This document shows positions 19,695-52,847 of a DNA stretch of 64,000 bases, piece after piece (positions within the stretch are counted from its first letter, which is position 1; every line of letters starts with the position of its first letter). The stretch is from the NCBI RefSeq assembly GCF_023330665.1, contig NZ_CP097127.1, forward strand, positions 496,001-560,000, in the 5' to 3' direction. The notes under the pieces are model-generated. The model saw only the letters and a program-made list of their open reading frames with translations. It did no database searches and was not told the DNA's origin. This DNA is from Conexibacter sp. S30A1. Lineage in GTDB: Bacteria > Actinomycetota > Thermoleophilia > Solirubrobacterales > Solirubrobacteraceae. Both the position numbers and the translations under genes were made by a program.

Positions 19695-20780
19695 TCACGG
19701 TCGGTCAGCTCGCCCGCCGGGGTGCTCGAGCCTGGCGCTTGACAACGGCTCGGGGATCAGGCGCTCATCGCCTGCGCTGATGGCGTCGGCGAGCAGGCGC
19801 CCGGAGGCGAGCCCCAGCGAAAGCCCGCGCCCGCCGTGCCCGGAGGCGATCCACAGATGCTCCTGCCCTGGGACTCGCCCCAGCAACGGACGGTTGTCAA
19901 AGGACTTGGGGCGCGCGCAGACGAGCGTCGAGCGCACGCGCGCCTGGGCGAGCGACGGTACGAACCGTGGTCCGCGGTCGAGCAGCCGCGGGCCCCAGTC
20001 CTCGCCGCGCGGCTCCTCACCCGCCAGCAATGTCGAGCCGACCGCCAGCCAGCTCGGGCTGTCGAGCAGCGTGAACGGTGCCACGTCATCGATCGCGCCT
20101 GCCAGCAGCCCGCGCGTGAGCGTCCCCTCGATCAGCGCGTGCCGGGGGTGGCGGGTGAGCTCCACCAGCACGATCACCCCCCACAGCGGCGTGACCGCAC
20201 CGGCGTCGATCAGCCCATCCAGGGCTGGCCCGGTGCCTGTGCCGGCGGCGACCACGACCTCGCCGTGCGTGCGTCGTAGCGCCGCCAGATCGGCGGCCTC
20301 GCCCAGCAGAAAGCGCACGCCCGCCGCACGGGCGTGCTCGGCCACCGTCTCGGTCGCGGTGAGCGGGCTGATCGGATAGCCCGTGTGCAGCAGACAGCCC
20401 CACATGTCGCCGGCCAGGAGCGGCTCCTCCGCAAGCGCCTGCTGGGGGTCGAGCACCGCGGGCGCGAGCTCGGGAAAGCTGCCGTAGTGGGCCGCCAGCT
20501 CGCGCGCGGTCGCTTCGTCCTCGACCAGCAGCATCGCGCCGACCGGCTCGCCCGGCATCGCCGCGCCGAGGAACTCGCCAAGCAGCGCCACGTTCTCCTC
20601 ATAGAGCGCGGTCGTGAGCGCGTCGTAGGTGTGCTCGACCAGGCCGTTATTGCGCCCCGACGCACCGGCTCCGATCCCCGACCGGTCGAGCACGGTCACC
20701 GACATACCGTGCTGGGCGAGGAAGTACGCGCTGGCGCAGCCGACGATCCCGGCGCCGATGATCGCAACGTCTGAAGCCAT
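19695..20780 (-). CDS. FAD-dependent oxidoreductase, DAO family
   Basis: A 361-residue protein of the D-amino-acid oxidase/glycine oxidase/sarcosine oxidase fold. The FAD-binding motif VAIIGAGIVGCASAYFLAQHG is at the N-terminus, GASGRNNGLVEH follows, and the C-terminal FAD contact is HLWIASGHGGRGLSLGLASG. The substrate is unknown. It is divergent from murL with only 26 nt between start codons, so the two may be co-regulated; a link to D-glutamate metabolism is only a guess. Confidence 0.8.
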   Translation of the reverse strand: MASDVAIIGAGIVGCASAYFLAQHGMSVTVLDRSGIGAGASGRNNGLVEHTYDALTTALYEENVALLGEFLGAAMPGEPVGAMLLVEDEATARELAAHYGSFPELAPAVLDPQQALAEEPLLAGDMWGCLLHTGYPISPLTATETVAEHARAAGVRFLLGEAADLAALRRTHGEVVVAAGTGTGPALDGLIDAGAVTPLWGVIVLVELTRHPRHALIEGTLTRGLLAGAIDDVAPFTLLDSPSWLAVGSTLLAGEEPRGEDWGPRLLDRGPRFVPSLAQARVRSTLVCARPKSFDNRPLLGRVPGQEHLWIASGHGGRGLSLGLASGRLLADAISAGDERLIPEPLSSARLEHPGGRADRP

Positions 20781-20799: not shown

Positions 20800-20806
20800 A
20801 GTGCTC

Positions 20807-22150
20807 GTGTCAACGCTTCCAGTCAAAGACTTCAGTCCGCAGGCGGTCCGCTCCTTCCAGTTCACCTACCGCAGCATCGCCCCGGACGGGCAGGTGCGGC
20901 TCGGCTATGCGCTCGACGACAACGAGTTCGAGGAGCGCTTCGAGTTCCCGGCCCCGCGTGTGCAGACCCCGGCGCTCGAAGGTCTGCTCGACCTGCTGCA
21001 CTGGATCGCCGGCATCAGCTACTACAAGGCGGCGGTGCCACAGCACCTAGTCTGCGAGACCGGCGCCCCGCCCGCTGCGGCCGCGCAGCTGCTGGCGGCG
21101 CTCTACTCCGAGGGCCTCGCCGAGTTTGCCTATGTGAACTCGCTCGAGGCGCTGCCGCGCCCGCAGTTCCCCCGCGGCGACGACACGACCCCGAGCGCCC
21201 AGCAGCGCGAGCTGCGCTCGCTGCTGGTGCCCCTCGGCGGTGGCAAGGATTCCGCGGTGGCGGTTGAGGTCGCTCGCGCAAGCGGCCTCGAGGTGACGTT
21301 GTTCTCGGTTGGTGACGCGCCACCGATCCGCGCAAGCGCCGAGGTCGCGAGCCTGCCGCGCCTGATCATCAGGCGCACCCTTGACCCGCGGCTGCTTGAG
21401 CTCAATGCGCGCGGCGCGCTCAACGGGCACGTCCCGGTCACCGCGATCGTCAGCGCTGTGGCGCTGCTCGCCGCCGCCACCCAGGGGATCGACGCGGTGG
21501 CGATGGCCAACGAGCGCAGCGCCTCGGTCGGCAGTCTCCAGTGGCAGGGCGTAGAGGTCAACCACCAGTTCTCCAAGGGCCGTCGCGCCGAACGGCTGCT
21601 GGCGGACGCCACCGCCGAAATCGACGGCGCCCCGCGGATCTTCTCGCTCCTGCGTCCCGCCTCAGAGCTCTCGATCGCCAGGGCCTTTGCGCGGCTCGAG
21701 CGCTACCACCCGGTGTTCACCAGCTGCAACCGCGTGTTCGCGCTCGACCCGCAGCGGCGCACCAGCTCCTGGTGCTGTAACTGCGACAAGTGCCGTTTCG
21801 TGTTTCTGATCCTGGCACCGTTCAGCACTCCCGAGCACATGCTTGAGATCTTCGGCGCCGACCTGCTCGATGATGCCTCCCAGTACGACGGGTTCGTCCG
21901 CCTGGTCGGCGGCGTGGATCAGAAGCCGTTCGAGTGCGTGGGCGAGCTGCAGGAGAGCCTCGCGGCCGTCCAGCTGCTCGACGCAAGCCCGCTGTGGCGC
22001 GAGCACGCCAACGTCAGGCGGCTGGCTGGCGCCGTGCTCGCAGGCCATGAGCTCAGCGCCGGGCAGATCGCTGCGCTATTTGAGCTGGGCGAGGAGCACG
22101 ACATCCCGGGCGAGCTGATCGGCTCGGTGCGTGAAGTTCTCGGAGCTTGA
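20807..22150 (+). CDS. murL: UDP-MurNAc-L-Ala-L-Glu epimerase
   Basis: A 447-residue protein that I recognise as MurL. In the MurL/MurD2 route MurD2 attaches L-Glu to UDP-MurNAc-L-Ala and MurL then inverts it to D-Glu in an ATP-dependent step. The PP-loop is VPLGGGKDSAVAVEVA (near residues 142-157) and a Cys cluster SSWCCNCDKCRFVFLIL lies near residues 320-336, both typical of the family. The next gene, overlapping by 20 nt, is a MurD2-type ligase, which supports the call strongly. GTG 20807 is chosen over GTG 20801 because it fits the TACGCT element. The assignment is from motifs and context and has not been tested. Confidence 0.85.
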   Translation: MSTLPVKDFSPQAVRSFQFTYRSIAPDGQVRLGYALDDNEFEERFEFPAPRVQTPALEGLLDLLHWIAGISYYKAAVPQHLVCETGAPPAAAAQLLAALYSEGLAEFAYVNSLEALPRPQFPRGDDTTPSAQQRELRSLLVPLGGGKDSAVAVEVARASGLEVTLFSVGDAPPIRASAEVASLPRLIIRRTLDPRLLELNARGALNGHVPVTAIVSAVALLAAATQGIDAVAMANERSASVGSLQWQGVEVNHQFSKGRRAERLLADATAEIDGAPRIFSLLRPASELSIARAFARLERYHPVFTSCNRVFALDPQRRTSSWCCNCDKCRFVFLILAPFSTPEHMLEIFGADLLDDASQYDGFVRLVGGVDQKPFECVGELQESLAAVQLLDASPLWREHANVRRLAGAVLAGHELSAGQIAALFELGEEHDIPGELIGSVREVLGA

Positions 22151-23342
22151 CGGACGGCGGGTCGCGCTCTGGGGGCTGGGGCGCGAGACCCGCGCGCTGC
22201 GCGACCAGCTGGCGGCGCGCCTGCCGGCCACGGTGATCAGCGCCGTGATCGATGAGGACACCCCGCAGGAGGAGGCGCGTGCAGCGCTCGCGCACGCCGA
22301 CGTGCTGATCCGCTCGCCCGGCGTCTCGATCTACAAGCCGCTGATCCAGGCCGCCCGCGCCGCCGGCCTGCCCGTCGGCACCGCCACCGGCCTATGGCTG
22401 GCCGAGCGCGGTGGCCGGCATGTGATCGGCGTGACCGGCACCAAGGGCAAGAGCACCACCGCCACGATCGTCGCGCACCTGCTGCGCCGCGCGGGCATGA
22501 GCGTCGAGCTGGCCGGCAACATCGGCCGACCGGTGATCGAGCTGATCGGACTCGACCCCGCGACCTGGGTGGTGCTCGAGCTCTCGAGCTACCAGATCGC
22601 CGACCTGGAGGTCGGGCCGGAGGTCGCGCTGCTCACCAACCTCTCGCGCGAGCACACCGACTGGCACGGCAGCGAGCAGCGCTACCGCGCCGACAAGCTG
22701 CGGCTCTTTGACCTGCCCGGGGTCCGCGCCGCGGTTCGCCCGCTTGGCGACCGCGGCGACTGGCCGCTGGTCGTGCCGGCCGCCGCGGTCCCGCTGCGCG
22801 GCGCGCACAACGCGCAGAACGTCGCGGCCGCGGTGGCGGCGATCCAGGCGGCCGGACTGCCGCTGCCCGACCTCCCCGGCGCGCTGACGGGGCTTGAGCC
22901 GCTGCCGCACCGTCTGCAGACGGTGCACGTCGACGCGCGTGGGGTCGAGTGGGTTGACGACAGCATCTCGACCACGCCGGCATCGGCGGTGGCGGCGATC
23001 GAAGCCTTTGCCGGGCGGTCACTGGTGCTGATCGCCGGCGGTGCCGACCGCGCTCAGGATTACGCTCCGCTCGGACAGGCGCTCGCCTTGCGCCGTGAGC
23101 CGACGGCGCTCGTGCTGCTGCCCGACACCGGCGAGGCGATCGCTGCCGCCGCGGCGGCCTTTGGTTTCGCCGCGGCCCGCATGTCGACAGCGGGAGACAT
23201 GCGGGAGGCAACACGCCTGGCCGCCTCGCGCGCGCAGCCCGGCGCGGTGATCCTGCTTTCGCCCGCGGCGCCGAGCTTCAACGCCTACCGCGACTTCGAG
23301 GAACGCGGCGATCACTTCGCCGCGTTAGCCTTGCGAACGTGA
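22131..23342 (+). CDS. murD2: UDP-MurNAc-L-Ala--L-Glu ligase (MurD2)
   Basis: A 403-residue Mur ligase. VALWGLGRETRALRDQLA forms the N-terminal domain, the ATP loop is GVTGTKGKSTTATIVAHLL (residues 100-118), and NLSREHTDWHGSEQRYRADK is the central metal/substrate region. The C-terminal motif is DDSISTTPASAVAAI in place of the DSKATN seen in ordinary MurD; this, together with an adjacent murL, points to MurD2, which adds L-Glu. GTG start at 22131 inside murL implies translational coupling. No ordinary murD occurs in the dcw cluster of this window, so this is probably the cell's main second ligase. Confidence 0.85.
   Translation: MKFSELDGRRVALWGLGRETRALRDQLAARLPATVISAVIDEDTPQEEARAALAHADVLIRSPGVSIYKPLIQAARAAGLPVGTATGLWLAERGGRHVIGVTGTKGKSTTATIVAHLLRRAGMSVELAGNIGRPVIELIGLDPATWVVLELSSYQIADLEVGPEVALLTNLSREHTDWHGSEQRYRADKLRLFDLPGVRAAVRPLGDRGDWPLVVPAAAVPLRGAHNAQNVAAAVAAIQAAGLPLPDLPGALTGLEPLPHRLQTVHVDARGVEWVDDSISTTPASAVAAIEAFAGRSLVLIAGGADRAQDYAPLGQALALRREPTALVLLPDTGEAIAAAAAAFGFAAARMSTAGDMREATRLAASRAQPGAVILLSPAAPSFNAYRDFEERGDHFAALALRT
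23326..23331 (+). promoter_or_regulatory. -10 element, leaderless type (argG)
   Basis: TAGCCT lies inside the end of murD2, 7 nt before GTG 23339. Confidence 0.35.
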
Positions 23343-24583
23343 CCGAACCGACCGCAACCTACCTGGCCAGGCCCGAGGACGTGCAGCGCGTGCTGCTGCT
23401 CTACAGCGGCGGCCTGGACACGAGCGTGATGCTCAAGTGGATTCAGGACGAGTACCAGGCCGAGGTGGTGGCGCTGACCGTCAACCTCGGCCAGCCTGGC
23501 GAGGACTACGACGTCGTGCGCGGCAAGGCGCTTTCGCTGGGGGCCGTGGAGGCGCATGTGGTCGACGCGCGCGAGGAGTTCGCGCGCGAGTACGTCGTGC
23601 CCGCGATCCGCGCCAATGCCATATACGGCCTCGGCTACCCGCTGTTCACGGCGCTCGGGCGGCCGTTGATCGCCAAGCTGGCGGTTGAGCTGGCGCGCCA
23701 GACCGGCTGCGACACGATCGCGCACGGGTGCACCGGCAAGGGCAACGACCAGGTGCGGATCGAGTCGACCGTCGCGACGCTGGCACCGGAGCTCAAGGTG
23801 ATCGCGCCCGTGCGGTCGTGGAAGATGGGTCGCAACGAGGAGGCCGCCTACGCGCGCGAGCACGGAATCCCGGTCAAGGGCGGGGCCGAGGTCGCGCCCT
23901 ACTCGATCGACGACAACCTCTGGGGACGCTCGAGTGAAGGCCGCTGGATCGAGGATCTGTCGGTGGCCCCGCAGGAGGACGTATTCCAGCTGGTGACGCG
24001 TCCAGAACTCGCCCCGGACGAGCCGGAGACGATCGAGATCGAGTTCGAGGCCGGGGTGCCGGTTGCCCTGGACGGCACGCGCCTGGGTCTGGTGGAGCTG
24101 CTTGACCGGGTCGCGGCGGCTGGCATGCGTCACGGGGTCGGGATCGTCGACCACATCGAGGACCGGATCGTGGGCCTCAAGGTGCGAGACATCTACGAGG
24201 TGCCGGCGGCAGCGATTCTGTTGCCGGCGCACGCCGAGCTCGAACGGCTGGTAGGCACCATCCACCAGAACCAGTTCAAGACGATGCTCGACCAGAAGTG
24301 GGCCTACCTGGTCTATGCGGGGCTGTGGTGGGAGCCGCTGCGCTCGGACCTCGACGCCTACATGCTGGCCGCCAACTCACAGGTCACCGGCCGGATCGGG
24401 GTGAAGCTGTTCAAGGGGTCGGCGCGAGTGGTGACCAGGCAGTCGCCCTACGCGGTCTACGACGCTCAGCTTGCGAGTTTTGCGGAGTCAGGCGGGCTGT
24501 TCAGCCAGGAGGCGTCGCCGGGCTTCATCGAGCTGTGGTCGCTGCAGTCGCGGATGGCCTGGCAGGTGCGCAACAGCCGATGA
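23339..24583 (+). CDS. argG: Argininosuccinate synthase
   Basis: A 414-residue enzyme that joins citrulline and aspartate with ATP. The ATP-PP loop LLLYSGGLDTSVMLKWI is at the N-terminus, and GCTGKGNDQVRIE, APVRSWKMGRNEEAAYA and GGAEVAPYSIDDNLWGRSSEG are diagnostic. Length is slightly above the usual 400. Its stop overlaps a small 86-residue gene by 4 nt; the start overlaps the murD2 end by 4 nt. Confidence 0.96.
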   Translation: MTEPTATYLARPEDVQRVLLLYSGGLDTSVMLKWIQDEYQAEVVALTVNLGQPGEDYDVVRGKALSLGAVEAHVVDAREEFAREYVVPAIRANAIYGLGYPLFTALGRPLIAKLAVELARQTGCDTIAHGCTGKGNDQVRIESTVATLAPELKVIAPVRSWKMGRNEEAAYAREHGIPVKGGAEVAPYSIDDNLWGRSSEGRWIEDLSVAPQEDVFQLVTRPELAPDEPETIEIEFEAGVPVALDGTRLGLVELLDRVAAAGMRHGVGIVDHIEDRIVGLKVRDIYEVPAAAILLPAHAELERLVGTIHQNQFKTMLDQKWAYLVYAGLWWEPLRSDLDAYMLAANSQVTGRIGVKLFKGSARVVTRQSPYAVYDAQLASFAESGGLFSQEASPGFIELWSLQSRMAWQVRNSR

Positions 24584-39421: not shown

Positions 39422-39874
39422 TTGATCTTCCGCGGAACCTTCGAACACTCGCTGGACACGAAAAACCGGCTGACGATTCCCGCTCGCTATCGCGAGGCTC
39501 TGAAGGCCGGAGTGGTGGTCGCGTTCTCGCCCGAGACCGAGATCGGCGAAACGCGCTCGCTATCGATCTGGCGTCCGGACGACTACGACGCGTTTGCCTC
39601 TGCAGCGCTGGCGAAGTTGAACCCGTTGAGTCCTCGTGCGCGCGATCTGAGCAACCTGCTCTACGGGAACTCCTGGGATCTGGAGCTCGACTCCGCGAAC
39701 CGTCTGGTGCTTCCCCAACCGGCGAGGGAGTTCGCGGCACTGGACCGCGACGTGGTGATCACGGGAGCCGGGGACCACATGCAGCTCTGGGACCGCACCG
39801 CCTTCGGCCACTACAACAGCCTTGCCCTGTCCCGCTTCTCTGAGATAGCTGCGAGCTTTGACAACACTGATTGA
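39422..39874 (+). CDS. mraZ: Transcriptional regulator MraZ
   Basis: A 150-residue protein with two AbrB-like domains: FRGTFEHSLDTKNRLTIPARYREAL, and LYGNSWDLELDSANRLVLPQPAREFAAL. MraZ represses the division cluster in other bacteria. The start is TTG 39422, which yields the family's MxFRG start; the nearby ATG 39412 is out of frame. It is the first gene of the dcw cluster, 1 nt before rsmH, and has its own MraZ boxes upstream. Confidence 0.93.
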   Translation: MIFRGTFEHSLDTKNRLTIPARYREALKAGVVVAFSPETEIGETRSLSIWRPDDYDAFASAALAKLNPLSPRARDLSNLLYGNSWDLELDSANRLVLPQPAREFAALDRDVVITGAGDHMQLWDRTAFGHYNSLALSRFSEIAASFDNTD

Positions 39875-39875
39875 C

Positions 39876-40817
39876 ATGACCACGCCGCACGTGCCCGTCT
39901 TGGCCGGCGAGCTGATCGATCTCGTCGACCCGGAACCCGGTGCCGTCGTCGTCGACTGCACGCTCGGCGCGGCGGGACACGCTCGTCTGGTGGCCGCACG
40001 GATCGGGCACGCGGGCACGCTGGTCGGGATCGATCGGGATCCGCTTGCGCAGGAACGCTTTGCCGACCTTGCGTCCGATCTGGGCTGCGCCACGCGGTTC
40101 ATCCGCAGCGACTTTGTCGCCGGCCTGGCGCTGCTTCGCGCCGAGGGTGTGAGGGCTGACGTCGTCTACATGGATCTGGGGATGTCGTCGATGCAGCTCG
40201 ATACGTGGGAGCGCGGCTTCTCATACTCGTATGACGCGCCCCTGGACATGCGGATGGACCCGGCTCAGGAGCTCACCGCGATGACGATCGTCAACACGTG
40301 GGACGAGCGCAGGTTGGCGAGCCTGCTGCGTGAATTCGGTGAGGAGCGCTTCGCCGGCGCGATCGCGCGAGCGATCAACAGGGCTCGCGGCCGTGTTCCC
40401 CTGACGACGACCCAGCAACTGGTGGACGTGATCAAGACTGCGATACCGGTTCCGGCGCAGTTCGCCGGCGGGCATCCGGCCAAACGCACGTTCCAAGCGT
40501 TGCGCATCGCCGTGAACGACGAGCTGACGCAGCTCGATGCGGCGCTGCCGCTGGCCTGGGACGTCCTCGCGGACGGGGGCAGGCTGGCGGTCATCTCGTT
40601 TCACTCGCTCGAGGACCGCCGGGTGAAGCGCTTTCTGGCGCAGCGTGCCCGTGGCTGTGTTTGCCCGCCCGAGCTGCCGATCTGTGTCTGTGGTCGTGAG
40701 CCCGAGGCGGAGCTGCTCACTCGTCGAGCGATCGCTCCCACGCCCGGCGAGGTCGCGGCAAATCCCAGGTCGAGGTCCGCGCACCTGCGCGCAGCCCGTA
40801 AGCTCGAGGCGCTGTAG
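39876..40817 (+). CDS. rsmH: 16S rRNA m4C1402 methyltransferase RsmH
   Basis: A 313-residue SAM-dependent enzyme that methylates N4 of C1402 in 16S rRNA. The N-terminal HVPVLAGELIDLV and VVDCTLGAAGHA form the SAM site, VYMDLGMSSMQLD follows, and GGRLAVISFHSLEDRRVKRFL is diagnostic. A Cys-rich stretch (GCVCPPELPICVC) lies near residue 265. It is in its standard place after mraZ. Confidence 0.95.
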   Translation: MTTPHVPVLAGELIDLVDPEPGAVVVDCTLGAAGHARLVAARIGHAGTLVGIDRDPLAQERFADLASDLGCATRFIRSDFVAGLALLRAEGVRADVVYMDLGMSSMQLDTWERGFSYSYDAPLDMRMDPAQELTAMTIVNTWDERRLASLLREFGEERFAGAIARAINRARGRVPLTTTQQLVDVIKTAIPVPAQFAGGHPAKRTFQALRIAVNDELTQLDAALPLAWDVLADGGRLAVISFHSLEDRRVKRFLAQRARGCVCPPELPICVCGREPEAELLTRRAIAPTPGEVAANPRSRSAHLRAARKLEAL

Positions 40818-40820
40818 AGC

Positions 40821-41591
40821 ATGGCTCAGACCCCAGCCACCGCAGCTGGCCGTGGGCGTGAGCGCCCGAGCGCCGCTCCTAAGCCGTCCAAGCGGTACAG
40901 CCCACGCTCGGACGGGTCCGTCCGGACGCCATCGGCGGCGGTTCGCAGCCCTGCGCGCGTGCGACCACAGACGCGCCCGTCGGGTCGTGCCAAGGCGGCG
41001 CTCGCCGCGCTTGAGCGCGAGCTTGACCATGCTCACGCAGAGCGCGCCACCGCGGCTGCGGACGCTCGCGGTGCTACACAGGCGACGGCGACGCGCAGGA
41101 CGCTGCGTGTGCAGGCACCGCGGCTTGACAGGATCGTCAGGGGCCGGGCATGGATACCGCTCGTGGCGGCGATGCTGGTGTTGATCGTGGGGCTGCGGGT
41201 CGAGGTGTTGAAGTTGAGTGCGAGTGTGGGCAGTGGCGTGCAACAGGTGGCGAGCTTGCAGAGCAGCAACGCGATCCTCGCTGCCAGGATCTCCGCGCTC
41301 AGCGACAACGGCCGCATTGAGCGGTTGGCCGCCTCATACGGTATGCACCTGCCAAACCCGCTGGATGTGCACTTCCTGGAAGCGGCGGCTGGCGCGCATG
41401 TGAGCGCGGCGATCCGCAATATCAGCAAGCCGTCTGCGACGGCTTTCCTCGCTGGGTTGGCTGCCGAGCAGCAGCACGACGCGCTGCTGACACAGGCCGG
41501 GTCCACGCTCAGTGCGATTGGCGCCCAGCCCACGGCACCGACGACGACCCTCAGCGCTGCCGGTACGACCAGCAGCGGAGCCGGGGGATAG
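40821..41591 (+). CDS. ftsL: FtsL-like cell division protein
   Basis: A 256-residue bitopic membrane protein. A long disordered basic N-terminus of about 100 residues (cytoplasmic), a membrane segment WIPLVAAMLVLIVGLRVEVL (around residue 115), a short coiled-coil (VASLQSSNAILAARISAL) and RIERLAASYGMHLPNPLDV are visible. The place between rsmH and ftsI is that of FtsL. The N-terminal extension and C-terminal Ala/Thr tail are longer than usual, so the call rests on position as much as sequence. Confidence 0.72.
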   Translation: MAQTPATAAGRGRERPSAAPKPSKRYSPRSDGSVRTPSAAVRSPARVRPQTRPSGRAKAALAALERELDHAHAERATAAADARGATQATATRRTLRVQAPRLDRIVRGRAWIPLVAAMLVLIVGLRVEVLKLSASVGSGVQQVASLQSSNAILAARISALSDNGRIERLAASYGMHLPNPLDVHFLEAAAGAHVSAAIRNISKPSATAFLAGLAAEQQHDALLTQAGSTLSAIGAQPTAPTTTLSAAGTTSSGAGG

Positions 41592-41598
41592 GGGCGAC

Positions 41599-43383
41599 GT
41601 GTCGACGACTACGCCACGCCGCTCCGTCGATGCGATCGACCGTCGCGTCGGGCTCATGTTTGGAGCGGTCATGGTGCTGCTGTTGCTCGGCGTGCTGCGA
41701 GCCGGCTACCTGGGGACGGTGCGCTCCTCGGCGCTGCGTCAGGCTGCGACCGACCAGCAGGTTCAGACGCTTCCCGTCCCTGCGCTCAGGGGCGAGATCA
41801 CCGATCGCAACGGCGTGGCGTACGCAATCAGCGAGCCGGCCGAAGCGATCTATGCCGACCCGATGCTGATCGACAAGACATACCGGAACCTGACGAGCGT
41901 CGCAACGGCCCTGGCACCCTTGGTCGGCAGGACCACAGCGAGCACACTGGCGCTCCTGCGTCACCCACGGCTCGGCTACGTCGAGCTCGCCGCCGACGTG
42001 TCCGTCGCCACCGCCGACCGGATCATGTCGCTTCAGGTAGGCGGCTCGGTCGGGATCAACGGCATCTGGGACGTGCCGACCGAACGCCGCGTGTACCCGC
42101 GCGGGAGCGAGCTCGCCCAGGTGATCGGCTGGGTTGGAGGCAACAAGGGACTCGACGGGCTCGAGTATGAGTTCAACAAGCAACTCGCCGGCCGGGCTGG
42201 GGTGCGCAAGACGGTGATCGACGCTCAGGGTCGGGCCATCGCTGTGACCACCGCCAAGGCGGTGGTACCCGGGCAGAACATACGGCTCACGATCTCCGCG
42301 CCGCTCGAAGCCGAGGTGCAGAGCGTGCTCGACGGCGTGGGGGCACAGTACAAGCCGCAGGGCGCCACTGCGATCGTCACCGATCCTCAGACGGACCAGA
42401 TCCTCGCGCTGGCCAACTGGCCGTCGCTCAACCTCGACCACATACCGGCCACCGCGCTGAGCTCGGTCCACGGGCGCCTGCCGGCGGCCGAGGATCAGGC
42501 GGTGGACTTCTCCTACGAGCCCGGCTCGACCTTCAAGGCGGTCACGGTCTCAGGCGCGCTGCAAGACGGCCTCATCACTCCGTCCACGGTGATTCGCATA
42601 CCGCCGTACCTGCAGGCCTACGGCCACATCGTCACCGACGCCGAGACCCACGGCTGGGAGAACCTATCGATCGCCCAGATCCTGAAGTTCTCGAGCAACA
42701 TCGGGGCGGTGGAGATCGGCAAGCGACTTGGGCCCGAGCGTTTCGGGCACTGGGTGAGCGAGTACGGCTTCGGCCGGCCGACGGGGGTAGCACTTCCCGG
42801 GGAACAGCGGGGCATCGTGCTGCAACCGTCGCAGTACTCGGGCTTCTCGATGTACAACCTGCCGTTCGGCCAGGGCATCTCGGTGACGCCGATGCAGATG
42901 ATTCAGCTGTACGACACCGTCGCCGACGGTGGCGTGCTGCACACACCACAGATCATCCAGTCGATCGGTGGCCACCGCGTGCCCGAGCCCAAGGGCCGCC
43001 GTATCGTGTCGGCGAAGGTCGCGCGCGAGCTGCGCTACATGCTGCGTGGCGTGCTTGCCGACGGCGGTACGGCGTCAGGCGCCGCGATCCCGGGATACGA
43101 CATGGCTGGCAAGACAGGCACCGCGCAGGTTGCTGTCAACGGCCAGTACTCCGCAACCAAGTTCGTCGCCTCCTTCGTGGGGATGGTTCCGGCCAGCAAG
43201 CCGCAGCTCGTGGTGCTCGTCGTCGTGGACGACCCGCAGGGCTCGATCTACGGCGGCAGCGTCGCCGCGCCCGCCTTCCAGAAGATTGTCGGCTGGGCGG
43301 TGCCGCACTTTGGCATCGACCCCTGCCCACCGAAGGCATGCCCAGCCTCGGCGATGCATCCCGCGATGCCGCCAACGCCATAG
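41599..43383 (+). CDS. ftsI: Septal transpeptidase FtsI (PBP3)
   Basis: A 594-residue class B penicillin-binding protein. An N-terminal membrane segment (LMFGAVMVLLLLGVLRAGYL) is followed by the PBP dimerisation domain, which begins around RGEITDRNGVAYA. The transpeptidase domain has SxxK in EPGSTFKAV, SxN in FSSNIGAVEIG and KTGTAQVAVN. No PASTA domain. GTG start at 41599, 7 nt after ftsL. It cross-links peptidoglycan at the septum. Confidence 0.93.
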   Translation: MSTTTPRRSVDAIDRRVGLMFGAVMVLLLLGVLRAGYLGTVRSSALRQAATDQQVQTLPVPALRGEITDRNGVAYAISEPAEAIYADPMLIDKTYRNLTSVATALAPLVGRTTASTLALLRHPRLGYVELAADVSVATADRIMSLQVGGSVGINGIWDVPTERRVYPRGSELAQVIGWVGGNKGLDGLEYEFNKQLAGRAGVRKTVIDAQGRAIAVTTAKAVVPGQNIRLTISAPLEAEVQSVLDGVGAQYKPQGATAIVTDPQTDQILALANWPSLNLDHIPATALSSVHGRLPAAEDQAVDFSYEPGSTFKAVTVSGALQDGLITPSTVIRIPPYLQAYGHIVTDAETHGWENLSIAQILKFSSNIGAVEIGKRLGPERFGHWVSEYGFGRPTGVALPGEQRGIVLQPSQYSGFSMYNLPFGQGISVTPMQMIQLYDTVADGGVLHTPQIIQSIGGHRVPEPKGRRIVSAKVARELRYMLRGVLADGGTASGAAIPGYDMAGKTGTAQVAVNGQYSATKFVASFVGMVPASKPQLVVLVVVDDPQGSIYGGSVAAPAFQKIVGWAVPHFGIDPCPPKACPASAMHPAMPPTP

Positions 43384-43384
43384 C

Positions 43385-43390
43385 TACGCT
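43385..43390 (+). promoter_or_regulatory. -10 element, leaderless type (murE)
   Basis: TACGCT overlaps the ftsI stop region and ends 9 nt before ATG 43400. There is no good -35, so its use is uncertain. Confidence 0.45.
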
Positions 43391-43399
43391 GTGGCGCCG

Positions 43400-44833
43400 A
43401 TGGATCTGGACGTCCTGTTTCCGGGCGCACCAGCGGTCGCGATCGCCGGTCTGGCCTATGACAACCGCCGCGTGCAGCCACACGACCTGTTCTTCTGTGT
43501 CCGCGGCTCCTCCTCGGACGGCCACGAGTTCGCGGCAGACGCCGTGCGGCGTGGCGCTGGGGCGCTGGTGGTTGACCACCCGCTGGGGCTTGGCGTTCCG
43601 GAGGTGGTGGTGGACGACGTCCGCGCTCATATGGCACAGGCCGCCGCAACCTTCTACGGCGACCCGACATCCCAGCTCCTGCTCGCCGGTGTCACCGGTA
43701 CCAACGGCAAGAGCACCACGGCCCACCTGCTGCGAGCGATGCTTGAGGCTGACGGCCGACAGACCGGTCTGCTGGGGACCGTCGGCAGTGTCATCGCCGG
43801 AGAGCCGGCGCAGCTCGAACGCACCACACCGGAGGCGATCGACCTGCAGAGGTCGTTCAGGGCGATGCTCAACGGTGGCGATGTGGCATGCGTAATGGAG
43901 GTCTCCTCGCATGCGTTGGCGCTCGGCCGCGTAGCGGCTTCCCGCTTCGCCCTGGGCCTGTTCACGAACCTCACCCAGGACCACCTCGACTTCCACGTGA
44001 CGATGGAGGACTACTTTCAAGCAAAGCGCCTCCTCTTCACGGATGTCGCCGCGGCGCGGGCGGTTCTGAACATCGACGACCCCTACGGTCGGCGGTTGGC
44101 GGCAGACGTCCAGGTCAAGGCGCCGCGCACCTTTGCCATCGACCGAGCCGACGCCGACTACCTGGCCAGCGATGTCCACACGGAGCTGTCAGGTTCGCGC
44201 TTTGTGATCCGTGGGCCGGAGGGCAGCGCGAGCGTGCGCTCGCCCCTGCGCGGACGCTTCAACGTGTACAACGTGCTCGGCGCCTACGCCGCCGCGCGCG
44301 AGCTGGGCGTCGCCGCTGACGCGGCTCTTGCCGCGATCGAGCACGCCGGGCAGGTCCCGGGACGTTTCCAGACAATCGATGCCGGACAGGACTTCGCGGT
44401 GATCGTGGACTACGCGCATACGCCGGACTCGCTCGAGAACGTGCTCAGAACCGCGCGCGCGCTCTGCACCGGTGAGCTGCATGTCGTGTTCGGCTGCGGC
44501 GGCGACCGTGACCGCGGCAAGCGTCCGCTGATGGGCGCGATCGCCGCGAGGCTCGCCGACCACGTCGTGGTTACCTCGGACAACCCGCGTTCCGAGTCGC
44601 CCGAGGCGATCATCGCAGAGATCCTGGAGGGGATAGATCGGCCTGTCTCGCACGACGCCGATCGTCGCGCCGCGATCAGCGCGACGATCGCAGCTGCGCG
44701 CAGCGGCGATGTGGTGCTGATCGCGGGCAAGGGTCACGAGCAGGGACAGGAGTTCGCAGGTGGCGTGAAGCTGCCATTCGACGATGCGGCGGTCGCACGC
44801 CAAGCGCTGGCCCAGTTCCATGGGGGTCGCTGA
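43400..44833 (+). CDS. murE: UDP-MurNAc-tripeptide synthetase (meso-DAP adding)
   Basis: A 477-residue Mur ligase that adds the third residue. AGVTGTNGKSTTAHLLRAML is the ATP loop, ERTTPEAIDLQ the substrate region, TQDHLDFHVTMEDYFQAK the metal site and VDYAHTPDSLENVL the C-terminal motif. TSDNPRSE contains DNPR, the meso-diaminopimelate signature, so the peptidoglycan is probably DAP-type. ATG 43400 gives a normal N-terminus; a TACGCT lies 9 nt upstream. Confidence 0.94.
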   Translation: MDLDVLFPGAPAVAIAGLAYDNRRVQPHDLFFCVRGSSSDGHEFAADAVRRGAGALVVDHPLGLGVPEVVVDDVRAHMAQAAATFYGDPTSQLLLAGVTGTNGKSTTAHLLRAMLEADGRQTGLLGTVGSVIAGEPAQLERTTPEAIDLQRSFRAMLNGGDVACVMEVSSHALALGRVAASRFALGLFTNLTQDHLDFHVTMEDYFQAKRLLFTDVAAARAVLNIDDPYGRRLAADVQVKAPRTFAIDRADADYLASDVHTELSGSRFVIRGPEGSASVRSPLRGRFNVYNVLGAYAAARELGVAADAALAAIEHAGQVPGRFQTIDAGQDFAVIVDYAHTPDSLENVLRTARALCTGELHVVFGCGGDRDRGKRPLMGAIAARLADHVVVTSDNPRSESPEAIIAEILEGIDRPVSHDADRRAAISATIAAARSGDVVLIAGKGHEQGQEFAGGVKLPFDDAAVARQALAQFHGGR

Positions 44834-44865
44834 GCGGTGCCGCTGTGTCGGTCGGCTTCCACAGC

Positions 44866-44871
44866 TACGCT
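44866..44871 (+). promoter_or_regulatory. -10 element, leaderless type (murF)
   Basis: TACGCT ends 9 nt before ATG 44881, in the 47-nt gap after murE. The element and spacing match murE exactly. Confidence 0.45.
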
Positions 44872-44880
44872 CGGTCCCCG

Positions 44881-46221
44881 ATGAGATCGTGGAACGCTGA
44901 CAAGGTCGCCGCTGCGGCTGGTGCCACGCTCGTTGGCCGGTCGGCAGCCGGCGCACGCGGTCCCGCGCGGGTCGTGATCGACTCACGCGAGGTGCGTGCC
45001 GGCGACCTCTTCGTCGGCTTGCCCGGCAGGAACGCCGACGGCGGAGCCTTCGCGCGGGCCGCGCAGGCAGCGGGAGCCTGGGGCGTGCTTGTCGCCCCCG
45101 ACCAAGAGTGCTCGCCTGAAGACAGCGTCGTGCTGGTCTCCGAGCAGCCGCTGGAGTCGTTGCAACGCCTCGCCACCGCGTGGCGCCGGGAGCTTGGCGC
45201 GAGTGTCATTGCCGTGACCGGATCCACCGGCAAGACCACGACCAAGGAGCTGCTCGCGAAGCTGATCTCGCCGTACCGCAGGACAGTGGCCTCGGCGGCG
45301 AACTTCAACACGGAGATCGGGATGCCCCTGCAGATCCTCCACGCTCCCGCCGGCAGCGAGGTTCTGGTGCTGGAGATGGGGATGCGTGGACCTGGGCAGA
45401 TCGCAGAGCTCGCACGGATCGCGGAGCCCGATGTCGGTGTGATCGTCAGCATCGGCCCAGCGCATCTCGACCAGCTGGGTTCGCTCGAGGCTGTGGCCGG
45501 CGCGAAGGCGGAACTGATCGCCGCGCTGGCGCCCGGTGCCACGGCGGTGCTGCCGGCGGGCGAGCGGTTGCTCGCCCCACACCTGCGCGACGACGTCCGC
45601 ACCGTCACCTTCGGTGTCCAAGGCGATGTTCGCCTGGTGAGCCAGGACACAGCCGAGCTCGAGATCGCCATTCACGGAGAGCGCCTGGCGTTGGAGGTCA
45701 ACTTCACAGAGCCGCACCTGCGCCACAACCTGTTGGCGGCGATTGCGGCAGCGGATGCCATTGGCGTGCGGCCCGGGCACAGGCTGGTATTCGAGCCATC
45801 ACCTGGGCGTGGTAAGCGACAGGTGACGGCTGGCGGAGTCACGCTGATCAACGACGCCTACAACGCGAACCCGGCTTCGATGCAGGCTGCGCTCGAAGTG
45901 CTGGCTGCCAGCGCAGCGACCGGAAGGCGCGTCGCGGTGCTCGGAGACATGCTCGAGCTGGGCACTGACTCCGAGCGCTACCACCGCGATGTCGGTGCCT
46001 ACGCGAACGGCCGTGCGGACCTGCTGGTCGGCGTCGGCCCGCGCGCCGTGGCGATGGCGCAGGCGTTCGACTCCCAGACGGTGCTCGCCTCCGACGCCGA
46101 CGCGGCCAGCGAATTGGTCGCTGAGATCGTCCGCCCAGGCGATGTCGTCCTGGTGAAGGGCTCCAATGCGGTCGGGCTGGAGCGCGTCTGTGAGCGCTTG
46201 ATCGCGGGTGGCGCATGGTGA
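44881..46221 (+). CDS. murF: UDP-MurNAc-tripeptide--D-Ala-D-Ala ligase
   Basis: A 446-residue Mur ligase. The N-terminal domain VVIDSREVRAGDLFVGLPG, ATP loop IAVTGSTGKTTTKELLAKL, FNTEIGMPLQ, VLEMGMRGPGQIAEL and the C-terminal LINDAYNANPASMQAALEVL are diagnostic. I choose ATG 44881, after a TACGCT element, over a GTG 36 nt upstream. It overlaps mraY by 7 nt. Confidence 0.94.
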   Translation: MRSWNADKVAAAAGATLVGRSAAGARGPARVVIDSREVRAGDLFVGLPGRNADGGAFARAAQAAGAWGVLVAPDQECSPEDSVVLVSEQPLESLQRLATAWRRELGASVIAVTGSTGKTTTKELLAKLISPYRRTVASAANFNTEIGMPLQILHAPAGSEVLVLEMGMRGPGQIAELARIAEPDVGVIVSIGPAHLDQLGSLEAVAGAKAELIAALAPGATAVLPAGERLLAPHLRDDVRTVTFGVQGDVRLVSQDTAELEIAIHGERLALEVNFTEPHLRHNLLAAIAAADAIGVRPGHRLVFEPSPGRGKRQVTAGGVTLINDAYNANPASMQAALEVLAASAATGRRVAVLGDMLELGTDSERYHRDVGAYANGRADLLVGVGPRAVAMAQAFDSQTVLASDADAASELVAEIVRPGDVVLVKGSNAVGLERVCERLIAGGAW

Positions 46222-47312
46222 TCGCGACAGCTGCGACACACTCGCTCAGCACCCAGGCCGGCAGGGTGCTGATCTCGAGCTCGGCATCGCTGTTGATGTG
46301 TCTGTTCCTGAGCCCGCGCTTCATCGACTTTCTGCGGCTCAGATCGTTCGGCCAGCAGATCCAGGAGGAGCTGCTGCAGCACCAGGGCAAGAAGGGGACG
46401 CCCACGATGGGCGGGATCATCATCGTGCTCGCGTTCGCGATTCCGTATCTGTTCCTTTCAACACACGACTGGGCTTCGATGGGTGTGTTCGGCGCGACGC
46501 TGGCCTGTGCGGCGCTGGGTCTGGCCGACGACTACACCAAGATCCTCAAGCGCCGCTCGCTCGGGATCCGAGGACGCACGAAGATGGTGGTGCTGCTGCT
46601 GATCTCGATCGGCCTCTGGTGGGTTGCAACGCACCGGGCCGGCATGTCTGACTCGGTATCGCTGCGACCGTTCGACGCGAGCATCAGCCTGCCGGTGCCC
46701 GTCTACATCATCTTCATCTACCTGGTGTTTGCGGGCACGACCAATGCGGTCAACCTAACCGACGGGCTCGATGGCCTTGCCGCCGGTTGCGGCGCGATCG
46801 CGCTTCTGACCTACATCGGAATCACCTATGTCACTGGACCGCAGGACCACGATCTGGAACTGGTTGCCGGTTGCCTGTGCGGCGCCTCGATCGGCTTTCT
46901 GTGGTTCAACGCGTTTCCTGCGAGCGTGTTCATGGGCGACACCGGCTCGCTGGCTATCGGGGGCGCGATAGCGGGCCTGGCGGTCATGACCAACACCGAG
47001 ATCCTGCTGCTGGTAATTGGCGGGATCTTCGTGTTTGAGGCGACCAGCGTGATCGTTCAGGTCTTCTCGTTCCGCGTCTTTCACAAGCGCGTCTTCAAGA
47101 TGGCCCCGATCCACCATCACTTCGTCATGGAGGCCTGGTCGGAAACCAAGATCATGCTGCGCTTCTGGATCGTGGCAGCCGCGTGCGGGGCGATCGGCTT
47201 CACGCTCTACCAGATCTCCGTGCCCGATTCGCAGCCCGCAGCGGTCCGCATTGCGGCGCCCATGATCGGTGCGCGAGCATTGCCTCCGGCCGGCACGAGC
47301 AGCGCTCGCTGA
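46215..47312 (+). CDS. mraY: Phospho-MurNAc-pentapeptide translocase
   Basis: A 365-residue membrane enzyme with about 10 segments that makes lipid I. GKKGTPTMGGIIIVL, LADDYTKILKRRSLGI, AVNLTDGLDGLAAG, FNAFPASVFMGDTGSLAIGG and the HHHF motif (MAPIHHHFVMEAWSETKIMLRFW) are the active site. Its ends fit, except for a short C-terminal tail rich in Ala/Pro. Overlaps murF. In most dcw clusters murD follows; here 72 nt lead straight to ftsW. Confidence 0.95.
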   Translation: MVIATAATHSLSTQAGRVLISSSASLLMCLFLSPRFIDFLRLRSFGQQIQEELLQHQGKKGTPTMGGIIIVLAFAIPYLFLSTHDWASMGVFGATLACAALGLADDYTKILKRRSLGIRGRTKMVVLLLISIGLWWVATHRAGMSDSVSLRPFDASISLPVPVYIIFIYLVFAGTTNAVNLTDGLDGLAAGCGAIALLTYIGITYVTGPQDHDLELVAGCLCGASIGFLWFNAFPASVFMGDTGSLAIGGAIAGLAVMTNTEILLLVIGGIFVFEATSVIVQVFSFRVFHKRVFKMAPIHHHFVMEAWSETKIMLRFWIVAAACGAIGFTLYQISVPDSQPAAVRIAAPMIGARALPPAGTSSAR

Positions 47313-47384
47313 GAGATCTCCACGCTGCGACCTCGTGCCCGAGCCGCTGAAGGCTTTGGCGCACACGCGTGGAATTAGACGGTC

Positions 47385-48659
47385 ATGCCGCCAAGCTCAC
47401 CCCATGTCCGAAGCGCCCGCAGGCTCGCCCCGCCGCTTGAGCACCAGATTCTGATGACAGCCACGCTGTGCCTGATCGCGTTCGGCGCGGTGATGGTCTA
47501 CAGCGCCTCCTCACCATTAGGCGCGCTGGCTGGCGGCTACGGTACCGGCGAGTTCGTCGTCTACCTGATCGCGATCGCCATCGGTCTGTTCGTGATGCGG
47601 TTCTGTGAGCAGTACGGCCTGAGACTGATCACCCCAGAACTAACCCGCCTGATGCTCCTTGGATCATGCGGACTGCTGCTGGTTGTGCTCGTACCGGGTC
47701 TCGGTCGCGATGTGGCGGGCGCACGTCGCTGGTTCGCCGTGGGGCCGCTCGAGTTTCAGCCATCAGAGCTCGCAAAGCTTGCACTCGTGCTCTACGCGGC
47801 TCGCTACCTGGCTGACAACCCGCGACGCCTGCAGCGTGATTTCAAGCAGGCCCTCGCACCGATTGCGGTTGCACTGGGCCCCGCGTGCCTGCTGATCGCC
47901 GTGGAGCCCGATCTCGGCACCGCATTCGTGTGCTTCGCGACGATCATGACGATGCTTGCGGTTGCTGGTGCCCCGAACGGCCATCTGCTGCGCGTCCTGC
48001 TGCTCGCCGCGGCCGGCGTGGGGCTGATGATCCTCGTGCACCCATACGAGCTCGCGCGCCTGACCTCATTCCTGCACCCGCTTTCGGAGCGAACAAGCGC
48101 CGGCTTCCAAGCAACGCAGGCGCAGATGGCGGTGGGTTCCGGCGGTCTCTGGGGGGTCGGCCTGGCGCAGTCGGTGGGCAAGATGTGGCTACCCGAGGCG
48201 CAGTCCGACTTCATCCTTGCTGTGGTGGGACAGGAGTTGGGTACGCTCGGAATCGTGGCCGTCGTCGGGTTGTACGCGATGATCGCCTACGCTGGCCTGC
48301 GCACAGCCCGTCGTGCCGCAAGCGGATACTTGAAGCTCCTCGCCTTCGGCCTCACCTCGTTGATCCTTTGCCAGGGAATCCTCAACATCTTCGTAGTGCT
48401 CGGGATCGCGCCGCTGACAGGCGTGCCGCTGCCCTTCATCTCCTATGCGCCCACGAACCTGATCGTGATGCTCGCATCCGTCGGCCTGCTGCTCGGCATA
48501 GCTCGACCAGCGGCACGGGAGCTGCGGCTAGTGGACGACGAGCCAGCAAACACGACCTGGGGAGTCAGCAGTGAGCAAGCCGCTGATCGTGGTGGCTACC
48601 GGCGGGACCGCAGGGCACGTGGTGCCCGCGTTGGCGGTAGCCAGGCAGCTCGAGGCTGA
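47385..48659 (+). CDS. ftsW: FtsW, septal peptidoglycan polymerase
   Basis: A 424-residue SEDS protein with about 10 membrane segments that polymerises lipid II. Family motifs: WFAVGPLEFQPSELAKLALVLY, LIAVEPDLGTAFVCFATIM, SVGKMWLPEAQSDFILAVVGQELG and PLTGVPLPFISYAPTNLIVMLASVGLLL. The C-terminal 30 residues are hydrophilic. It overlaps murG by 89 nt, so the C-terminus may differ slightly between strains. Confidence 0.93.
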   Translation: MPPSSPHVRSARRLAPPLEHQILMTATLCLIAFGAVMVYSASSPLGALAGGYGTGEFVVYLIAIAIGLFVMRFCEQYGLRLITPELTRLMLLGSCGLLLVVLVPGLGRDVAGARRWFAVGPLEFQPSELAKLALVLYAARYLADNPRRLQRDFKQALAPIAVALGPACLLIAVEPDLGTAFVCFATIMTMLAVAGAPNGHLLRVLLLAAAGVGLMILVHPYELARLTSFLHPLSERTSAGFQATQAQMAVGSGGLWGVGLAQSVGKMWLPEAQSDFILAVVGQELGTLGIVAVVGLYAMIAYAGLRTARRAASGYLKLLAFGLTSLILCQGILNIFVVLGIAPLTGVPLPFISYAPTNLIVMLASVGLLLGIARPAARELRLVDDEPANTTWGVSSEQAADRGGYRRDRRARGARVGGSQAARG

Positions 48660-49671
48660 CGGCGCCCGCGTCGAGTTCGTCGGCGGTGACCGCGTGGAGG
48701 CGCGGCTCGTTCCGGAGGCCGGCTACCGGCTTCATCACCTGCGTGTGCAGTCGCTGCCGAGAGGCAGGCGAGTTGCGCTCGCGCAGGCGGCGCTGGTGGA
48801 TCTCGCGGCCGTTGGCGCCGCGGTGCGGCTGCTGGCCCGAGCCCGTCCGCAGGCCGTCTACGGCGGCGGCGGCTACGTCGCCGCGCCGGTCGGTCTGGCG
48901 GCGGCGCTGTTGCGGATTCCGCTCGTGATCGCTGAAATCGACGCCCACCTGGGCCTCGCCAACCGGATGCTCGCACCCTTCGCACGCCGTGTCTGTCTGG
49001 CGCTGCCCCTGCCGGAACACGACCCACCAAAGTTCGTCGTCACCGGGCGGCCGATCCCGCCCCTGCCGCCTGACCGGGCGGCCGCAAGAGCCCGTTTCGG
49101 CGTTGGCGCCGGCGAGACACTGGTCCTGGTGTTCGGTGGCTCCCAGGGGGCCCGCTCGATCAACCGGGCCGCCATCCAGGCGTTCGCCGACAGGTCGTTC
49201 CGGGTTCTGCACGCCGCCGGTGAGCGGGACCTGCCGCAGCTGCGCGCACCGCGAGCTGGCTACCAGTTGGTCGGCTACCTCGACGGGCTGATTGATGCGA
49301 TAGTGGCCTGCGACCTGGCCGTGGCACGCTCTGGCGGCTCGATCTGGGAGCTGGCCGCAGCCGGCCGGCCGGCCGTGTTGATCCCATACCCGCACGCAAC
49401 GGCCGACCATCAGCGGGTCAATGCCGAGTACATGCGGCGTGCCGGAGCCGCGTGCGTGATCGGCGATGAGGAGCTCACCGGCGAGCGTCTGCGCGCTGAG
49501 GTTGATGCCCTGCTGGCTGACCGCTCACGGCTCGAGGCGATGGGCAGAGCGGCGCTTGGCTTGGCTCGGCCGCACGCAGCCGCGGTGATCGCATCCGAGG
49601 TTCTTGCGGCGGCCGCCGGTGGTAGCGGGGTGGCCGGCGCAGGCAACGAGCGCGTGCAGCTGAAACCATGA
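48571..49671 (+). CDS. murG: Undecaprenyldiphospho-muramoylpentapeptide GlcNAc transferase
   Basis: A 366-residue GT28 enzyme that makes lipid II. VATGGTAGHVVPALAVARQL is the N-terminal membrane-side motif, AVYGGGGYVAAPVGLAAAL follows, and LVFGGSQGARSINRAAIQAF and AVARSGGSIWELAAAGRPAVLIPYPHATADHQRVNAEYM bind UDP-GlcNAc. GTG start at 48571 inside ftsW; it overlaps murC by 4 nt. Confidence 0.95.
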   Translation: MSKPLIVVATGGTAGHVVPALAVARQLEADGARVEFVGGDRVEARLVPEAGYRLHHLRVQSLPRGRRVALAQAALVDLAAVGAAVRLLARARPQAVYGGGGYVAAPVGLAAALLRIPLVIAEIDAHLGLANRMLAPFARRVCLALPLPEHDPPKFVVTGRPIPPLPPDRAAARARFGVGAGETLVLVFGGSQGARSINRAAIQAFADRSFRVLHAAGERDLPQLRAPRAGYQLVGYLDGLIDAIVACDLAVARSGGSIWELAAAGRPAVLIPYPHATADHQRVNAEYMRRAGAACVIGDEELTGERLRAEVDALLADRSRLEAMGRAALGLARPHAAAVIASEVLAAAAGGSGVAGAGNERVQLKP

Positions 49672-51011: not shown

Positions 51012-51061
51012 GCGCCTGCAGCTCTCGCGCCCACCGAACGCGCGGTGTCCTGGGACCCCAC

Positions 51062-51067
51062 TACGCT
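51062..51067 (+). promoter_or_regulatory. -10 element, leaderless type (murB)
   Basis: TACGCT ends 8 nt before GTG 51076 (11 nt before ATG 51079). Confidence 0.45.
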
Positions 51068-51075
51068 CCGACGCT

Positions 51076-52014: not shown

Positions 52015-52838
52015 TCCGCGACGGCTGGACTGGGCCAGGAGCGGCGAGTGAACGGCGCGCGCTGCTGGGGCGTCTCAGGCCGCGGCGCCCGCGGCCGTTG
52101 TGGGTGGCGGTCCTGACGGTGCTCCTATGCGGCTGTGGGTGGCTCGGCTGGACCTGGTACAGAAGCTCGAGCTTCGTTCAGGTGCGGACCGTGCGGATCA
52201 CCGGTCTGGCTGGTCCCGATGTGGGCCAGATCCAGGCCGCACTGACGGGCGCTGCGTTGCGGATGACGACACTCGATGTGAACGTGGCCAAGCTCGAAGC
52301 CTCAGTCGCACGGTTCCGCTTTGTCCAGGGGCTGTCGGTCTCGAGCCGCGGCTCGCATGCGGTCACCATTCACGTTGCCGAGCAGGTTCCCGTCGCAGTC
52401 GCCGAGTTTGGCTCTGAGAGTCGCGTCGTCGCAGCCGACGGCCGGTTGGTCGGCGGCGCGGTGCCCGGGGTACGGCTGCCGCGCCTGCCGCTTGCGCAGG
52501 CGCCCACCGGCCCGACGGTCAGTGCACCCGGCGCGCGGTCGGCGGTGGCTGTGCTGGCCGCGGCGCCCTACGCGCTGATTTCGCATATCGCAAACGCGAC
52601 CTGGAGCGCGCAGCACGGGGTCGTCGTGCAGTTGCGAAAGGGGCCGCAGCTCTACTTCGGCGCTGCCGTCGAGCTCGCCAAGAAGTGGCGCTCGGCGATC
52701 GCTGTGCTGCAGAACAAGTACTCCGTGGGTGCCTCCTACATCGTCTTGACCGATCCTGTGCACCCCGCCGCGGGAGTGGGCGTCTCGCCGTCGCGTGCCG
52801 CGGCGCTTGGCCTTGCGACAGGCGCCGGCAGCGGCTAG
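52011..52838 (+). CDS. ftsQ: Division protein FtsQ (DivIB)
   Basis: A 275-residue bitopic protein. Basic N-terminus, one membrane segment (LWVAVLTVLLCGCGWLGWTWY, residues 30-50), then a POTRA domain starting FVQVRTVRITGLAGPDVGQIQAAL and GLSVSSRGSHAVTIHVAEQVPVAV. The C-terminal domain is short and Ala-rich. GTG start at 52011 overlaps murB. It links FtsB/L and the septum in other bacteria. Confidence 0.85.
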   Translation: MIRDGWTGPGAASERRALLGRLRPRRPRPLWVAVLTVLLCGCGWLGWTWYRSSSFVQVRTVRITGLAGPDVGQIQAALTGAALRMTTLDVNVAKLEASVARFRFVQGLSVSSRGSHAVTIHVAEQVPVAVAEFGSESRVVAADGRLVGGAVPGVRLPRLPLAQAPTGPTVSAPGARSAVAVLAAAPYALISHIANATWSAQHGVVVQLRKGPQLYFGAAVELAKKWRSAIAVLQNKYSVGASYIVLTDPVHPAAGVGVSPSRAAALGLATGAGSG

Positions 52839-52847
52839 CCCCGGCGA

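What the first reader, a model, noticed from the sequence alone, without database searches (positions are those of the whole stretch)
20807..23342. murL-murD2 pair, with murD missing from the dcw cluster
The two genes encode a MurL-like epimerase (PP-loop GGGKDS, Cys cluster CCNCDKC) and a MurD2-type ligase with DSISTTP in place of DSKATN, overlapping by 20 nt. The dcw cluster at 39-54 kb has murE, murF, mraY, ftsW, murG, murC and murB but no murD between mraY and ftsW, only 72 nt. The sequence therefore suggests that this organism relies on adding L-Glu and then epimerising it at the UDP-MurNAc-dipeptide stage. That is known in Xanthomonas and reported in some Actinomycetota; a complete swap with the dcw murD lost would be a strong case.
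Basis: partly seen in the sequence, partly recalled or inferred. Interest (0 to 1): 0.75.

Follow-up and report, generated by a model that had tools for sequence, protein, structure and literature searches.

The report
MurL–MurD2 route replaces murD and murI
This actinobacterium has almost certainly swapped the usual cell-wall step (make D-glutamate, then attach it) for the rarer known one (attach L-glutamate, then flip it), while a relative in the same genus still uses the usual step: a clean example of a pathway swap rather than a new pathway.

Summary
murL (20801-22150) and murD2 (22131-23342) overlap by 20 nt; the dcw cluster has only 72 nt between mraY and ftsW. In the single-contig 3.46 Mb genome the window's MurD2 is the only MurD above the family cut-off. 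There is no glutamate racemase, and the only D-amino-acid-transaminase match is IlvE. MurD2 carries all four residues that mark Xanthomonas MurD2, plus Ile where E. coli MurD has Lys319. A same-genus genome (G157) has canonical murD exactly between mraY and ftsW, has murI, and lacks murL. In 199 genomes of the class murL and murI are strongly anti-correlated (2/17 vs 161/182; p = 4e-11); of 24 further Actinomycetota with murL, none has murI above cut-off. The pathway is already published, including in Actinomycetota, so this is a new member of a known kind. Additions: murL-murD2 sits in murD's own dcw slot in another family; MurL and MurD2 are fused in a CPR contig; K319I/L and K348R are universal but D182E is not; and the MurL model matches QueC-type PP-loop enzymes, supporting adenylation of the substrate carboxylate. 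Activity is inferred, not assayed.

The parts
20801..22150 (+). [quoted passage not shown] alternative start GTG 20807). PP-loop G146-S151, Cys4 set C309/C325/C328/C331, invariant C379
   Evidence: NF041275 full length, E 1.7e-129; invariant residues over 47 homologues; AlphaFold2 model pLDDT 86, pTM 0.90; QueC/QatC/Cap9-like fold
22131..23342 (+). [quoted passage not shown] coli MurD numbering; about 34 residues shorter in the central domain than its relatives
   Evidence: TIGR01087 278 bits; residue tables; tree; deletion
23339..24583 (+). argG (argininosuccinate synthase), overlapping murD2 by 4 nt; linkage conserved in near relatives, but the same-genus genome G157 has only a 32% identical ArgG elsewhere
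19695..20780 (-). divergent DAO-family FAD oxidoreductase starting 20-26 nt from murL; conserved neighbour in near relatives
   Evidence: PF01266 148 bits; synteny
46215..47312 (+). mraY of the dcw cluster
   Evidence: TIGR00445 275 bits
47313..47384 (.). 72-nt mraY-ftsW junction: the slot where murD lies in the same-genus genome G157 and where murL-murD2 lies in family f5 (G007, G122)
47385..48659 (+). ftsW of the dcw cluster
   Evidence: TIGR02614 317 bits, best of six FtsW/RodA-family models
39422..54164 (+). dcw cluster mraZ-rsmH-ftsL-ftsI-murE-murF-mraY-ftsW-murG-murC-murB-ftsQ-ftsZ without murD
   Evidence: ORFs; mraY and ftsW named by HMM, the others by sequence and by matches in the same gene order in relatives

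Best explanation
The organism (Actinomycetota, Thermoleophilia, Solirubrobacterales by its named relatives) makes the D-Glu of its peptidoglycan only by the MurD2-MurL route. [quoted passage not shown] The dcw murD and the racemase gene murI are absent. Shown here: genes, absences, diagnostic residues, co-inheritance, predicted fold. Inferred: substrate stereochemistry and the chemistry in this species (shown in vitro for X. oryzae, Micromonospora and Salinispora enzymes, PMC8788868).
For: Only MurD in the genome is MurD2; no murI, no DAAT over cut-off, the best match being IlvE. MurD2 has E/R/P/F at the four X. oryzae MurD2 signature positions and Ile at K319, where K319T lets E. coli MurD take L-Glu. 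Same-genus G157: canonical murD in the mraY-ftsW slot, murI present, murL absent. Class survey: murL vs murI Fisher p = 4.5e-11; phylum: 0/24 murL genomes outside the class have murI over cut-off, 23/24 have one MurD over cut-off, nearly all next to murL. MurL and MurD2 distances correlate, r = 0.89, 0 of 2000 permutations. MurL-MurD2 fusion in a Kaiserbacteria contig. MurL-linked MurDs separate from canonical MurDs on a 99% branch. Structure match to QatC, QueC, Cap9.
Against: No assay. The genome is estimated 93.8% complete. Two class members (G122, G109) carry murI besides murL (or a murL fragment). The MurL score is below the curated NF041275 cut-off. Several groups of MurL-linked MurDs keep Asp at position 182, so the published two-residue rule is not universal (the window does have Glu). 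The MurD tree is a quick search with some long branches.
Confidence: 0.93

Rival explanations
1. The window's MurD is an ordinary D-Glu ligase that has drifted and moved out of the dcw cluster, and D-Glu comes from an unrecognised racemase or transaminase; MurL does something else.
For: MurD2 scores above the TIGR01087 (D-Glu ligase) cut-off; some relatives (G103, G118, G127, G130, G172) have canonical murD and neither murI nor murL, so unrecognised D-Glu sources may occur in this order.
Against: All diagnostic positions are of MurD2 type and, one paralogue apart (G172b), shared only with genomes that have murL; canonical MurDs of the same family, including the same genus, fall on the other side of a 99% branch; murL and murD2 are adjacent, overlapping, co-evolving, and once fused.
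Confidence: 0.03
2. Mixed system: murL-murD2 is functional, but a murI or murD lies in a part of the genome that is missing from the assembly.
For: Completeness estimate 93.8%; G122 has both murI and murL-murD2.
Against: One contig of 3.46 Mb; the two other same-genus murL genomes (G160, G192) and nearly all other murL genomes also lack murI; the dcw slot itself is assembled through and empty.
Confidence: 0.03
3. MurL-MurD2 act on another nucleotide sugar or polymer, not on peptidoglycan.
For: A MurD2-like paralogue without MurL lies in a sugar-nucleotide cluster in G172, so such diversion may happen.
Against: The window's MurD2 is the only MurD in the genome while MurC, MurE, MurF and MraY are all present, so the second stem-peptide residue needs it; murL-murD2 lies inside the dcw cluster in G007 and G122.
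Confidence: 0.01

Closest known systems
MurD2-MurL alternative peptidoglycan pathway (Xanthomonas oryzae XOO_1320/XOO_1319; Micromonospora, Salinispora)
   Same: Adjacent pair, no murI or D-amino-acid transaminase, MurD2 signature residues E197/R358/P433/F435 conserved, MurL full-length homology
   Different: Class Thermoleophilia (not in the list of PMC8788868); pair linked to argG and a DAO-family gene, outside the dcw cluster; MurD2 about 34 residues shorter in the central domain
Canonical MurD/MurI route (E. coli; same-genus genome G157)
   Different: D182/K319/K348/A414 replaced by E/I/R/P; no racemase; different clade
QueC-family PP-loop enzymes (QueC, Cap9, QatC)
   Same: Predicted fold (TM-score over QueC 0.67), (S/G)GGxDS loop, C(x)nCxxCxxC set; QueC acts on a carboxylate with ATP
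   Different: Below Pfam detection; C(x)15CxxCxxC spacing; extra N- and C-terminal parts; epimerises rather than amidates; not mentioned in the 2026 QueC family survey (PMC13329287)

Membership tests
MurD2 (L-Glu-adding ligase) | Glu at EcMurD D182 (X. oryzae E197) | tested here: met
   Glu in the window (REH)
MurD2 (L-Glu-adding ligase) | Arg at EcMurD K348 (X. oryzae R358) | tested here: met
   DRAQDY; Arg in every MurL-linked MurD, Lys in every canonical one
MurD2 (L-Glu-adding ligase) | Preference for L-Glu in vitro | not testable with these tools
   needs enzyme assay
MurL epimerase | Full-length homology to the MurL model NF041275 | tested here: inconclusive
   Positions 3-445 of 447, E 1.7e-129, 432 bits, below the 700-bit cut-off; the model is Xanthomonadales-tuned and none of the 30 murL genomes found in the phylum survey reaches it
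MurL epimerase | Encoded with MurD2 | tested here: met
   20-nt overlap
[quoted passage not shown]
   needs enzyme assay
Alternative-pathway genome | No murI, no DAAT | tested here: met
Alternative-pathway genome | No canonical murD | tested here: met
QueC family (PF06508) | Pfam gathering score | tested here: not met
   No Pfam match at E 0.001: not filed as a member
QueC family (PF06508) | QueC fold | tested here: met
   Foldseek on the predicted model: 3bl5 TMt 0.67, 9nto TMt 0.66, 9y02 (QatC) best by E-value but TM 0.37-0.39
QueC family (PF06508) | SGGxDS loop and C(x)8CxxCxxC | tested here: inconclusive
   Variants GGGKDS and C(x)15CxxCxxC; G146-148, D150, S151 and the four Cys are invariant in 47 MurLs

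The most novel reading that the evidence does not exclude
MurL is a QueC-derived adenylating enzyme repurposed as an epimerase, and the murL-murD2 cassette has replaced murI and murD repeatedly, including within single genera, in situ in the dcw cluster in one family and as a gene fusion in a CPR lineage; K319I/L plus K348R, not D182E, is the general mark of L-Glu ligases.
Probability: 0.55. Interest if true: 0.55.

Novelty: new member of a known kind. Interest (0 to 1): 0.42.

Why it matters
D-Glu is a hallmark of bacterial walls, and its supply and attachment are antibiotic targets; a lineage without murI and canonical murD would need inhibitors of MurL/MurD2 instead. One genus holds both routes, which gives a close natural comparison for how an essential pathway is swapped. 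The QueC-like model turns MurL's unexplained chemistry into a testable active site (PP-loop, Cys4 set, C379).

Tried and rejected
Sequence search of MurL against PDB: no relative; the profile search gave only weak TtuA PP-loop matches. hhalign of MurL against E. coli QueC: probability 4%, though it lines up the P-loop and the Cys4 motif, so the QueC link rests on the fold search. PF01177 hit considered as a racemase and rejected as EutA/AMDase-like. IlvE considered as D-Glu transaminase and rejected: 417 bits for IlvE against 155 for DAAT, whose cut-off is 277. L005 considered as a second MurD and rejected as a second MurF next to ddl.

Full report
Observation. The window holds a GTG-started 449-aa ORF (20801-22150) and a 403-aa ORF (22131-23342) overlapping by 20 nt, with argG starting 4 nt before the end of the second. 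The first matches only one NCBIfam model, MurL (NF041275, profile positions 3-445 of 447, 432 bits, E 1.7e-129; curated cut-off 700, a model tuned to Xanthomonadales) and no Pfam family; the second matches MurD (TIGR01087, 278 bits, cut-off 212). The dcw cluster is complete from mraZ to ftsZ except for murD; mraY ends at 47312 and ftsW begins at 47385.

Whole genome. The window lies in a 3,458,291-base single contig, estimated 93.8% complete. Only the window's MurD2 reaches the MurD cut-off; other Mur-ligase matches are MurE, MurF, MurC, a second MurF beside ddl, and MurT. Glutamate racemase TIGR00067: no match. PF01177: one hit, resembling EutA/arylmalonate decarboxylase. Aminotransferase class IV: IlvE and a PabC-like protein; no D-amino-acid transaminase above its cut-off. 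Named relatives of the locus (80%, 67%, 56-58% identical MurL) are Solirubrobacterales or Actinomycetes MAGs.

Diagnostic residues. PMC8788868 reports that X. oryzae MurD2 differs from E. coli MurD at D182, K348, A414 and L416 (E197, R358, P433, F435), that E197D/R358K turns it into a D-Glu ligase, and that E. coli MurD K319T gains L-Glu use. Aligned with E. coli MurD, the window has E, R, P, F at the four positions and Ile at K319. Across 45 MurL-linked MurDs besides a near-copy, K348R is universal and K319 is always Ile or Leu; D182E is not (Asp in genus g9, in families f20 and f54, and in others), although Glu is found in the window, in most Thermoleophilia with murL, in the f59 genomes and in L020. 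All eight canonical MurDs taken from genomes without murL are D/K/K/A. Mur-ligase catalytic residues are kept. The window's clade has lost about 34 residues of the central domain.

Same-genus contrast. G160 and G192 have murL and no murI; G157 (one contig, 3.6 Mb) has murI and no murL, and has a canonical murD (390 bits) between mraY and ftsW, exactly the slot that is empty in the window. Its murI sits beside rph-like and rdgB-like genes (named from sequence, not by HMM). It lacks the window's argG orthologue (best 32% against 90-91% in G160 and G192). Genus g50 shows the same contrast for murL and murI (G031 murL+, G043 murI+).

Surveys. In 199 genomes of the class, murL occurs in 17; murI above cut-off occurs in 2 of those and in 161 of the other 182 (Fisher p = 4.5e-11, not corrected for relatedness). 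Among 396 Actinomycetota of at least 90% completeness, 30 have murL; of the 24 outside the class, none has murI above cut-off and 23 have a MurD above cut-off, nearly always adjacent to murL.

Gene order. In G007 and G122 the order is mraY-murL-murD2-ftsW: the pair occupies murD's own slot. In the window's family it lies outside dcw, with a divergent DAO-family gene and argG in near relatives. In genus g9 the two genes are apart. In a Candidatus Kaiserbacteria contig they form a single 838-aa ORF (MurL residues 11-409, MurD 447-834) followed by murC. MurL and MurD2 distance matrices correlate at r = 0.89 (0 of 2000 permutations). On the MurD tree the MurL-linked proteins and the canonical ones lie on opposite sides of a 99% branch (quick search, SH-aLRT only), so the window's MurD2 is not a drifted copy of the lost dcw murD.

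Mechanism. PMC8788868 states that MurL consumes ATP to AMP, works only L to D, lacks known conserved domains, and is proposed to adenylate the alpha-carboxylate. The AlphaFold2 model of the window's MurL (pLDDT 86, pTM 0.90) matches QatC (best E-value, low TM-score over the whole length), QueC (TM-score 0.67 over QueC) and Cap9 (0.66) in the PDB. Over 47 MurLs the loop GGGxDS, C309, C325, C328, C331 and a further C379 (PFECVGE) are invariant; C(x)15CxxCxxC resembles QueC C(x)8CxxCxxC and QatC C334/C354/C357/C360. Sequence comparison alone is too weak to claim membership, and Pfam does not detect PF06508. My inference: MurL works like a QueC-type carboxylate-activating enzyme, with a metal, probably zinc, at the four cysteines as a structural site and C379 as a candidate base. 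The roles of individual residues are guesses.

Novelty. The pathway and its presence in some Actinomycetota (Micromonospora, Actinoplanes, Verrucosispora, Salinispora), with absence of D-Glu-forming genes, are published. Thermoleophilia, CPR and Lachnospiraceae are not in that list; orthologues in other groups may be described outside the open-access library I could search. I rate it a new member of a known kind, with modest additions on evolution, specificity residues and fold.

Noticed in passing
L019:5971-8487 (Candidatus Kaiserbacteria, MFLP01000036.1): Single 838-aa ORF fusing MurL to a MurD2-type ligase, directly followed by murC.
   Followed up: partly
L082:7001-8344 (genome G172): A MurD2-like ligase (Glu182, Tyr319, Arg348) in a sugar-nucleotide gene cluster, in a genome with a canonical dcw murD and no murL: perhaps L-Glu is added to another UDP-sugar.
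   Followed up: partly
genomes G103, G118 (genus g22) and G127, G130, G172 (genus g24), same order: Canonical murD but no murI, no murL and no D-amino-acid transaminase above cut-off; the D-Glu source is unexplained.
   Followed up: partly
L080 and L081 (genome G122): Both murI and a dcw-embedded murL-murD2 pair on one contig, without canonical murD: an intermediate state, or a racemase with another role.
   Followed up: partly
window 19695-20780: DAO-family FAD oxidoreductase divergent from murL with only 20-26 nt between start codons, conserved in near relatives; role unknown.
   Followed up: partly
window 22131-23342: MurD2 of the window's clade (window, L012-L014, G192) lacks about 34 residues of the central domain that relatives G160 and L015 keep.
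   Followed up: yes
window 55553-57031, minus strand: A 492-aa ORF that looks like a DDE transposase, just downstream of the gcvT-like gene that follows ftsZ.
   Followed up: no
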